In this document: positions 34,402 to 36,262 of the stretch, piece by piece
Position numbering within the stretch: position 1 is the stretch's first letter
Layout: every line of letters begins with the position of its first letter
Assembly: GCA_021777215.1 (NCBI GenBank)
Contig: JAJYDS010000014.1
Coordinates: 1 to 36,613 of the forward strand
DNA: 36,613 bases
DNA from: a bacterium
GTDB taxonomy: Bacteria; Babelota; Babeliae; Babelales; Vermiphilaceae
Reading direction: 5' to 3'
Position numbers and translations under genes: made by a program
The notes under the pieces: model-generated
Database searches by the model: none
Told to the model about the DNA's origin: nothing
Seen by the model: the letters and a program-made list of their open reading frames with translations, nothing else

Positions 34402-35208
34402 TTATAGAATTCCTTGCTCGCGTAGTTCATGCTCTAGGCTAAGGGCATCAGCACAGTAGATAGTCTTTATGCCTTTTTGTTTGGCGGCCGCGAGATTTTC
34501 TTGCCGAAAATCTATTAAGTAAATATCTTCTGCTTTATAATTTTTCAAAAGAGGCTCATAAAAGCGGCTTTCACAAGCAAGCATGCCGCAGTCTCCAGAT
34601 GTATAAAATGTGTCAAAGAGACCAAAAATGGAGGGATACATTTGCTTAGCGGCATTAAACGAGTCGCTATTCCAGCTTGAACAAAGGGCTATGGAATGTC
34701 CTTTTGATTTGCAATTTTGCGCCAATGAAAAGATTGCTCGATTGACACTCAACACCTTTGCCGAATCATAAGGACTAAAAGCATATTCGGCGGTTATTTT
34801 TAAGCGTGTTTTTTTAAATAATCCGCAATGACGCTTAATGTGGTGGAGGGCATACTTTTGAACGTCCTGATTACTCATTTGGTTGGTGAGCCAGGCCTCG
34901 ATAAGTTCTGGGTAAGTGCCGGTGTAGCCGCGCAGACCATTGACATGCAGTGAGCGGAGTGTGTCAAAAAATTCTCTCTCTACAACTTCAGGACGCAGGC
35001 CAAAGAGTGCGGTAAGCTTTCCTCCGGGGACTTTACTTAAATCAGGGAAAAATAAGACGTCCTTAATACCAAAGAGAATCAATTTTTTTGATTGAGTGGT
35101 GTGTGGAGAAGACGTGTCTGTTGCCAAAGCAAGATCGGTGGCATGATGATGAGTGCTGAAAAGAATGCCTAATAGGAAAAAAATGAATAATTGGGTATTT
35201 CTCTTCAT
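34402..35208 (-). CDS. Exported HAD-like protein lacking catalytic aspartates, paralog 1
   Basis: Starting at the ATG at 35206-35208, the 268-residue protein has a signal peptide (about 1-25) and a HAD-like fold. Motif I, normally FD-x-DGVL, reads FGIKDVLF: the nucleophile is Gly47 and the acid/base position is Lys49. Motif II keeps a serine (LCSSWNSDSF). The motif III lysine is replaced in GMLACESRFYEPLL, and motif IV is LIDFRQENLAAAKQKG with one aspartate left. It is therefore very unlikely to be a phosphatase. It is closely related along its whole length to the next gene (35441-36262), indicating a tandem duplication. An exported binding protein acting on host molecules is possible but not shown. 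Confidence 0.8.
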   Translation of the reverse strand: MKRNTQLFIFFLLGILFSTHHHATDLALATDTSSPHTTQSKKLILFGIKDVLFFPDLSKVPGGKLTALFGLRPEVVEREFFDTLRSLHVNGLRGYTGTYPELIEAWLTNQMSNQDVQKYALHHIKRHCGLFKKTRLKITAEYAFSPYDSAKVLSVNRAIFSLAQNCKSKGHSIALCSSWNSDSFNAAKQMYPSIFGLFDTFYTSGDCGMLACESRFYEPLLKNYKAEDIYLIDFRQENLAAAKQKGIKTIYCADALSLEHELREQGIL

Positions 35209-35387
35209 AGAAAAACTCTCTTTTTTTAATACAGCAGACGCAGCTTTTTTCTTAATGTAGCAGTGCCTTTGGATAAAGCAAGTTGTTAACAGTGTCAGAA
35301 CATACAAGTGCGAGTGTTTGAGGGGTGAAAAATAAGAGTCTCTTTCTCGCGTTTGCTGTTTTTTATCGGGTGCTTTATGGGTAACAT

Positions 35388-35419
35388 AAAAAGCCTCAGG
35401 CGTTACTCTGAGGCTTTTT
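35388..35419 (-). terminator. Terminator of HAD-like paralog 2
   Basis: AAAAAGCCTCAG (35388-35399) pairs perfectly over 12 bp with CTGAGGCTTTTT (35408-35419), with an 8-base loop. It lies 21 bases past the stop of the minus-strand gene, and its U-tract in that direction is within the stem end. Confidence 0.75.
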
Positions 35420-35440
35420 ATATCGTGTAATCAGGAAGGA

Positions 35441-36262
35441 TTATAAAATTCCCTGTTTGCGTAATTCATATTCCAAGCCGCGCGCATCAGCGCAGTAGAT
35501 GGTATTGATGCCCTTTTTATGGGCAGCGGCAAGGTTTTCTTGGTAGCAGTCGATTAAGTAAATGTCTTGTGCTTTGTAGTCTTTCAAGAATTTATCATAA
35601 AAACGTTCTTCACAGGCAAGTACGCCACAGTCGCCTGATATATAAAAAGCCTCAAATGGGGCGAATGCGCTGTAGTGCGTATTCTTAACGGCAATAAAGG
35701 ATTCACTATTCCAGCTTGAGCAGATTGCAATAGTATGTCCTTTAGCCTTGCAGCTTTGTGCCAATGAGACTATATCATGATTTACGCTCAGCACATTGGC
35801 GGCATCATACGGGCTGAATGCTATTTCTGCCGCTGGTTTTACGCGCATTTTTTTCAAGAAGCCGCAATTATGTTTGATGTGGTAAACGGCATAGCGTTGT
35901 GCGTCTTGGTTTGTCATTTGGTTGGTGAGCCAGGCTTCTATAATTTCTGGGTAGGTGCCGGTGTAGCCACGCAGACCGTTGACACGCAATGAGCGTAATT
36001 CTTCAAACAGTTCCCGCTCTACTACTTCTGGGGTAAGGCCAAAAAGTGCGCCAAATCCACCACCTTTTACTCGTGTCAGATCGGGATAGAGGAGACAAGA
36101 GCCTTTGCTCCCTTTAATGCCAAACAGGAGTAATTTTTTCGATTGGGCTAGGGGAGCAGGGGTAGATGAAACTTGTGCGGATGTAGCTTGGTCGGCTTCG
36201 AAATTGCCAAAAAAGAGCGTTCCAATGAGCATAAAAAATAAACTTTTAGTGCAATTTTTCAT
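35441..36262 (-). CDS. Exported HAD-like protein lacking catalytic aspartates, paralog 2
   Basis: The start is the ATG at 36260-36262 with AAAGGA upstream, giving 273 residues and a signal peptide of about 24 residues. It aligns end to end with paralog 1, including GLRGYTGTYPE, EAWLTNQM and ICSSWNSESF, and ends EYELRKQGIL. Motif I is more degraded (FGIKGSKGSCLLYPD, with a short insert), and motif IV is LIDCYQENLAAAHKKG. The nucleophile is again glycine (Gly48). Strong conservation of surrounding residues, against loss of the catalytic ones, suggests the fold was kept for another purpose. A degraded transposase lies just upstream of its promoter region. Confidence 0.8.
   Translation of the reverse strand: MKNCTKSLFFMLIGTLFFGNFEADQATSAQVSSTPAPLAQSKKLLLFGIKGSKGSCLLYPDLTRVKGGGFGALFGLTPEVVERELFEELRSLRVNGLRGYTGTYPEIIEAWLTNQMTNQDAQRYAVYHIKHNCGFLKKMRVKPAAEIAFSPYDAANVLSVNHDIVSLAQSCKAKGHTIAICSSWNSESFIAVKNTHYSAFAPFEAFYISGDCGVLACEERFYDKFLKDYKAQDIYLIDCYQENLAAAHKKGINTIYCADARGLEYELRKQGIL

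What the first reader, a model, noticed from the sequence alone, without database searches (positions are those of the whole stretch)
34402..36262. Tandem exported pseudo-HAD proteins that lost the catalytic aspartates
Both paralogs keep the fold landmarks of HAD phosphatases but replace the motif I DxD by G-x-K and lose the motif III lysine, while acquiring signal peptides. Other segments (GLRGYTGTYPE, EAWLTNQM, CSSWNS) are nearly identical, pointing to selection for a non-enzymatic role. In a host-associated bacterium they are candidates for secreted binding factors.
Basis: partly seen in the sequence, partly recalled or inferred. Interest (0 to 1): 0.65.

Follow-up and report, generated by a model that had tools for sequence, protein, structure and literature searches.

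The report
Exported look-alike phosphatases without active site
A bacterium that probably lives inside single-celled eukaryotes carries two neighbouring genes for exported proteins that keep the shape of a sugar-phosphate phosphatase but have lost its active site; they belong to a clade of five such copies in this genome, and other members of the phylum have active and inactive exported relatives, so they probably bind something rather than catalyse.

Summary
P0001 (35441-36262) and P0002 (34402-35208) are exported-looking, 63% identical, and HAD-like: P0002 matches E. coli YihX by sequence (E 2.7e-6), and both AlphaFold models match YihX and the epoxide-hydrolase phosphatase domain. Motif I Asp is Gly and motif III Lys is Ala. 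The second motif IV Asp is also lost; motif II Ser and the first motif IV Asp remain. The host is Candidatus Dependentiae (Babelota).

The interpretation needs correcting. Export was not acquired with the loss: most family members across the phylum, active-looking ones included, carry a signal-peptide-like N-terminus. The ancestral motif I was DxG, as in YihX, not DxD. The pair belongs to a five-member inactive clade confined to this genome; other Dependentiae have inactive exported copies, usually close to intact paralogues. dN/dS is about 0.12-0.19 (rough, dS near saturation) without sign of gene conversion, so the proteins are under selection. Best reading: exported pseudophosphatases kept as binding proteins; target unknown. 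Secreted HADs and inactivated secreted enzyme families are already reported in this phylum, and non-catalytic HADs elsewhere, so this is a new variant of a known kind.

The parts
35441..36262 (-). P0001, 273 aa, exported pseudo-HAD (YihX-like), degenerate paralogue 1
   Evidence: ORF; 63% identical to P0002; NCBIfam PRK09456 glucose-1-phosphatase E 3e-6, below its cut-off; AF2 model matches YihX 2b0c, E 9.9e-8, prob 1.00
34402..35208 (-). P0002, 268 aa, exported pseudo-HAD (YihX-like), degenerate paralogue 2
   Evidence: ORF; PDB sequence match to YihX E 2.7e-6; AF2 model matches sEH phosphatase domain and YihX, prob 1.00
36173..36262 (-). Signal-peptide-like N-terminus of P0001 (MKNCTKSLFFMLIGTLFFGNFEADQATSAQ); cleavage site uncertain
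   Evidence: basic n-region plus hydrophobic stretch, own heuristic; no AxA-like site found by the script
35119..35208 (-). Signal-peptide-like N-terminus of P0002 (MKRNTQLFIFFLLGILFSTHHHATDLALAT)
   Evidence: own heuristic with AxA-like site
36113..36121 (-). P0001 motif I remnant G-I-K (residues 48-50) in place of the Asp nucleophile motif
35062..35070 (-). P0002 motif I remnant G-I-K (residues 47-49)
35705..35722 (-). P0001 motif II CSSWNS (Ser kept; family SNWD)
34666..34683 (-). P0002 motif II CSSWNS
35615..35617 (-). P0001 motif III position Ala216 in place of invariant Lys
   Evidence: Lys in 116/116 relatives classed as intact
34576..34578 (-). P0002 motif III position Ala211 in place of invariant Lys
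35546..35551 (-). P0001 motif IV D-C (family D-D)
34507..34512 (-). P0002 motif IV D-F (family D-D)
35383..35424 (.). Strong hairpin between the two genes, probably an intrinsic terminator of P0001; suggests separate transcripts
   Evidence: -23.6 kcal/mol, z -8.3
32843..33616 (-). P0003, related HAD with intact motifs (D, S-N, K, D-D) and no signal peptide, downstream on the same strand
   Evidence: Pfam PF00702 E 2.7e-11; motifs

Best explanation
P0001 and P0002 are exported pseudophosphatases. An ancestral exported YihX-like HAD phosphatase (C1-type cap) of Dependentiae was duplicated in this lineage. One copy lost the Asp nucleophile, the motif III Lys-Pro and the second motif IV Asp, and then multiplied into five paralogues, the last duplication giving the tandem pair. 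The proteins are translocated by Sec and cleaved by signal peptidase I (inferred). They fold as HADs and, with the phosphoryl-transfer and Mg2+ chemistry gone, work by binding: the retained core and cap bind a phosphorylated ligand or a protein partner outside the bacterial cytoplasm, most likely in or at the host. Shown: fold, loss of catalytic residues, clade of five, selection. Supported by sequence pattern only: export. Inferred: dead catalysis, binding role and site of action.
For: Fold and kinship: P0002 to YihX 2b0c/8pno/8pne by sequence, E about 3e-6; NCBIfam PRK09456 E 1e-8 and 3e-6; Foldseek prob 1.00 to YihX and sEH phosphatase for both models. Targeted loss: active-site columns kept 9/45 against 98/150 elsewhere in the five-member clade (tally). 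Clade of five with motif columns left out of the tree: SH-aLRT 96. Selection: dN 0.25-0.26, dS 1.4-2.1, ratio 0.12-0.19; no gene-conversion signal, p 0.71. Export: 22/22 degenerate members have signal-like N-termini against 186/545 other ORFs; signal peptidase I is encoded in the same window. Precedents: PcrP, a non-catalytic protein-binding HAD (PMC12632274); secreted inactivated peptidase family in Babela (PMC4378268); secreted HAD hydrolases in Chromulinavorax (PMC6561590).
Against: No partner, ligand, expression or localisation data. dS is near saturation, so the ratio is rough, and no other genome of the genus was held, so selection is judged from paralogues only. AF2 models are of medium confidence (pLDDT 65-68; cap region under 50 in one model, 50-65 in the other) because only three sequences could be aligned. 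Signal peptides were called with a home-made heuristic. Motif II Ser and the first motif IV Asp are kept, so some residual phosphate or metal binding is possible.
Confidence: 0.6

Rival explanations
1. Pseudoenzyme regulators: the dead copies form heteromers with intact exported HAD paralogues (such as P0007 on contig C43) and activate, stabilise or restrain them.
For: 18 of 22 degenerate genes in the phylum lie within 8 kb of an intact paralogue, nearly all on the same strand, several almost touching (G031, G044, G065, locus L184). In this genome the degenerate L206 copy is 2.8 kb from exported, intact P0007.
Against: Tandem duplication alone gives the same pattern; 58 of 120 intact genes also have an intact neighbour. 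The two window genes lie next to a signal-less intact HAD (P0003), not an exported one; two of the five own-genome copies have no intact neighbour within 8 kb.
Confidence: 0.17
2. They are still enzymes by another chemistry, using the kept motif II Ser, first motif IV Asp or new Cys residues.
For: Ser182/177 and Asp238/233 are kept, and six Cys of the mature P0002 are shared with P0001, two of them next to former motifs II and III.
Against: The HAD mechanism needs the motif I Asp for the aspartyl-phosphate intermediate (PMC4251788). The replacing residues are not the same across the clade (G, G, G, A, E at motif I; A, A, T, T, M at motif III), which is unlike a new shared active site.
Confidence: 0.08
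3. Decaying duplicates with no function.
For: Obligate symbionts accumulate dead genes (general knowledge); five diverged copies with no orthologues elsewhere; degenerate copies are less conserved than intact neighbours in one other genus (L146/L184).
Against: All five own-genome frames are open. dN/dS is 0.12-0.19 for the window pair. In family f7, partly degenerate orthologues are better conserved (52-59% aa identity) than intact orthologues of the same four genomes (38-48%).
Confidence: 0.07
4. The chance-resemblance reading: the proteins are not HADs and the motifs are coincidental.
For: No Pfam hit even at E 10.
Against: Sequence match to YihX, profile match, iterative family search and Foldseek all agree.
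Confidence: 0.02

Closest known systems
E. coli YihX (HAD4), alpha-D-glucose-1-phosphate phosphatase, HAD subfamily IA variant 3 (PDB 2b0c, 8pne, 8pno)
   Same: Best match by sequence and among the best by fold; same order of motifs; the family's motif I DxG matches the DLGN of YihX (the latter from my own knowledge).
   Different: YihX is active and has no signal peptide; P0001 and P0002 lack the nucleophile, Lys and second Asp, have a larger cap insertion and look exported.
Secreted HAD hydrolases of Chromulinavorax destructans (PMC6561590)
   Same: Same phylum; signal-peptide-bearing HAD hydrolases are reported there.
   Different: Reported as hydrolases for host breakdown; no inactive forms are described in the passages read, and I did not compare the sequences.
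PcrP (PA2803) and PSPTO_2114, non-catalytic HADs of Pseudomonas (PMC12632274)
   Same: C1 HAD fold without phosphatase activity; for PcrP, function by protein binding shown by pull-down and two-hybrid.
   Different: Phosphonatase-like with truncated cap, exclusive to Pseudomonads; P0001/P0002 derive from the YihX branch with a long cap region. Sequences not compared here.
Secreted Ulp1-like family of Babela massiliensis with inactivated members (PMC4378268)
   Same: Same phylum; lineage-specific expansion of secreted enzyme homologues, several inactivated.
   Different: Different fold (peptidase).

Membership tests
HAD superfamily (fold) | Rossmannoid HAD core with motif order I-II-III-IV | tested here: met
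   Foldseek prob 1.00 to YihX and sEH phosphatase; sequence match E 2.7e-6
HAD superfamily (enzyme) | Motif I Asp nucleophile | tested here: not met
   Gly in both
HAD superfamily (enzyme) | Motif III Lys | tested here: not met
   Ala in both; Lys in 116/116 relatives classed as intact
HAD superfamily (enzyme) | Motif IV acidic pair (Mg2+) | tested here: not met
   D-C and D-F; only the first Asp kept
HAD superfamily (enzyme) | Motif II Ser/Thr | tested here: met
   CSSWNS, Ser aligned with the family S-N
YihX / PRK09456 glucose-1-phosphatase | Score above the curated NCBIfam cut-off (295 bits) | tested here: not met
   27.1 and 35.1 bits: a distant relative, not a member
Exported YihX-like HADs of Dependentiae | Match to the profile of 143 ORFs from Dependentiae genomes, with signal-like N-terminus | tested here: met
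   E 5e-58 and 1e-51 (the pair was part of the seed); signal heuristic
PA2803/PcrP non-catalytic HAD subfamily | Phosphonatase-like sequence with truncated cap | not tested
   PcrP sequence was not fetched; best matches are YihX and epoxide-hydrolase type, not phosphonatase
Secreted protein | Translocation out of the cytoplasm and processing | not testable with these tools
   Only sequence features

The most novel reading that the evidence does not exclude
Dependentiae keep exported HAD phosphatases together with exported dead paralogues as working pairs: repeatedly across the phylum an exported phosphatase was duplicated, one copy lost its active site and stayed linked to the active one, giving a recurrent enzyme/pseudoenzyme system acting on the protist host. 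The window pair would be its most expanded form.
Probability: 0.17. Interest if true: 0.62.

Novelty: new variant of a known kind. Interest (0 to 1): 0.42.

Why it matters
It would show that an intracellular bacterial phylum recruits a common metabolic fold as an exported non-enzymatic protein. It also warns that these genes, if annotated at all, would be called HAD hydrolases although they cannot use the HAD mechanism. The contrast of intact and dead exported paralogues within one genome gives a direct experimental system for pseudophosphatase function, with protein production in laboratory E. coli as the entry point.

Tried and rejected
Pfam gave no match for P0001/P0002 even at E 10. Alignment A1 was too diverse for a viral-contig scan. 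I considered gene conversion as the reason for the near-identical segments: synonymous identity is not locally raised (14 of 18 codons in the best window, p 0.71). I considered a shifted nucleophile (Asp50 of P0002, +3 from the Gly): P0001 has an insertion there and no Asp, so rejected. I considered that export was acquired with loss of catalysis: rejected, since intact relatives carry signal-like N-termini. I tested whether all 12 motif-I-less members could be one clade: the tree puts them in several places (at least 5 changes), but the AU test does not reject one clade (p 0.10), so the number of independent losses is not settled.

Full report
What is there. The minus strand of the window's right end carries two ORFs with ATG starts, P0001 (35441-36262, 273 aa) and P0002 (34402-35208, 268 aa). 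They are 63% identical. Between them is a hairpin of -23.6 kcal/mol (35383-35424, z -8.3), probably a terminator, so they are likely transcribed separately. Downstream on the same strand lies a related HAD with intact motifs and no signal peptide, P0003 (32843-33616; Pfam Hydrolase E 2.7e-11).

Whose genome. The window's topoisomerase I has its best matches, 58-67% identity, in Candidatus Dependentiae/Babeliales assemblies, some deposited only as 'bacterium' or under another name. The genome held is 1.2 Mb in 43 contigs. The phylum is described as strictly intracellular in protists (PMC12172432).

Is it a HAD. Pfam is silent. The NCBIfam profile of glucose-1-phosphatase (YihX) matches the C-terminal half at E 1e-8 (P0002) and 3e-6 (P0001), far below its cut-off. 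P0002 matches YihX in the PDB at E 2.7e-6; P0001 only at 0.04. AlphaFold models built from the three window proteins have pLDDT 65 and 68, with a confident Rossmann half and an unsure cap. Both match YihX and the soluble epoxide hydrolase phosphatase domain with probability 1.00, E 1e-7 to 2e-8 for the best. The HAD fold is secure; details of the cap and pocket are not.

The family. A search of the own genome finds eight related genes. Of 134 genomes searched (own genome included), 64 have a match to P0001 at E<=1e-3 and 109 a match to a profile of intact exported members at E<=1e-6, the latter including ordinary HADs and genomes outside the order. From 92 sequences (the window and 91 fetched loci) I collected 143 related ORFs by iterative HMM search and read their motifs. 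Family consensus: F-D-L-G-G-V, L-S-N-W-D, G-x-x-K-P, F-I-D-D. 116 are intact at motif I D, II S/T, III K and IV D. The ancestral motif I is therefore DxG, which I recall is also the motif of active YihX.

Export. A simple heuristic (basic n-region, uncharged hydrophobic stretch) of 142 members signal-like: 73 of 120 intact and 22 of 22 degenerate, by a slightly looser definition of intact, against 186 of 545 other ORFs of 220 aa or more. In many intact members the hydrophobic stretch ends about 11 residues before the motif I Asp, so the mature protein is a bare HAD domain; the five own-genome inactive copies have longer spacers (31-75 residues). Signal peptidase I is encoded in the window (PF10502). 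So export is the common state and was not gained with the loss of catalysis.

The loss. In the five-member clade (P0001, P0002, L204, L205, L206 at 10526), columns conserved in intact relatives fare as follows: motif I Asp 0/5, +2 Gly 0/5, motif II Asn 1/5 and the Asp two places further on 0/5, motif III Lys 0/5 and Pro 0/5, second motif IV Asp 0/5; motif II Ser 4/5, first motif IV Asp 4/5. Non-catalytic landmarks are kept: cap Trp 5/5, Phe 5/5, core Phe, Ser, Ala, Gly 5/5. By my tally this is 9 of 45 against 98 of 150. Loss is concentrated on the active site.

History. In a tree built without the motif columns the five form one clade (SH-aLRT 96), confined to this genome, while the intact exported P0007 groups elsewhere. 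Degenerate members also occur in other families of the order: f7 (motif II Ser to Gly, second motif IV Asp lost), two genomes of genus g37, G031, G044, G089, and G012/G027. Parsimony counts at least 5 changes at motif I, but an AU test does not reject a single clade of all 12 motif-I-less rows (p 0.10), so repeated loss is likely and not proven. 18 of 22 degenerate genes lie within 8 kb of an intact paralogue; tandem duplication alone could explain this.

Selection. Between P0001 and P0002, dN is 0.25-0.26 and dS 1.36-2.15 by three methods, ratio 0.12-0.19. Synonymous sites are near saturation, so the value is rough. The highlighted segments contain silent differences (2, 1 and 2 changes in GLRGYTGTYPE, EAWLTNQM, CSSWNS), and a scan for local gene conversion is negative (p 0.71). 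The same segments correspond to landmarks of the active-looking family (P...W-L-x-G in the cap; S-N-W-D motif II). In family f7 the partly degenerate orthologues are better conserved (52-59%) than the intact ones of the same four genomes (38-48%), whereas in g37 the degenerate pair is less conserved (34% against 59%).

How it most likely works. Without the Asp nucleophile the aspartyl-phosphate route (PMC4251788) is closed, and without Lys and the second acidic residue the transition-state and Mg2+ sites are broken (established HAD mechanism). What remains is an exported core-plus-cap scaffold under selection. The best reading is a binding protein acting outside the cytoplasm; a regulatory partner of an active exported paralogue is the main rival. 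Neither target nor location is shown.

Comparison with known things. Secreted HAD hydrolases are mentioned for Chromulinavorax, where 44% of proteins carry signal sequences (PMC6561590). Babela has a secreted peptidase-like family with inactivated members (PMC4378268). Non-catalytic HADs that bind proteins exist (PcrP, PMC12632274). Searches of the held library for Dependentiae with YihX found nothing and with haloacid dehalogenase nothing relevant by title. This is therefore a new variant of a known kind: a lineage-specific clade of exported YihX-derived pseudophosphatases inside a phylum-wide exported HAD family.

Noticed in passing
window 225-2165 (+): GlmS whose catalytic N-terminal Cys is preceded not by Met but by a signal-peptide-like leader (MLMRGFQKTFSIVFGGTLLLSTFSGDA|CSIVGYVGG), so cleavage by signal peptidase would expose the nucleophile and put the enzyme outside the cytoplasm. 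It is the only GlmS match in this genome. One relative (G015, locus L210) has a similar leader; the five other relatives whose start was read have Met directly before the Cys.
   Followed up: partly
locus L006:1048-1944 (G000 contig C43): P0007, an exported YihX-like HAD with fully intact motifs in the same genome: a candidate active exported sugar-phosphate phosphatase and the natural control for the inactive pair.
   Followed up: partly
loci L161, L159, L171, L175, L134, L138, L155, L199 (family f7): A conserved orthologous group of partly degenerate exported HADs (motif II Ser to Gly, motif IV E-T or D-x, motif I Asp and Lys kept), in four genomes more conserved than intact paralogues of the same genomes.
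   Followed up: partly
window 34402-36262: Six Cys residues of mature P0002 are all shared with P0001; two flank the former motifs II and III (C181/C217 in P0001) and might form a disulfide across the old active site.
   Followed up: no
window 17223-17943 (-): A GNAT acetyltransferase ORF (17223-17561) with an adjacent upstream ORF bearing a signal-like N-terminus (17614-17943); possibly one gene broken by a frameshift, or two genes. A second GNAT-like ORF with a hydrophobic N-terminus lies in L003 at 2903-3526.
   Followed up: no
window 36359-36613 (-): Open-ended ORF that looks by eye like the tail of an IS3-type transposase at the contig end, next to the pair (no Pfam match), so the contig probably breaks in a mobile element.
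   Followed up: no
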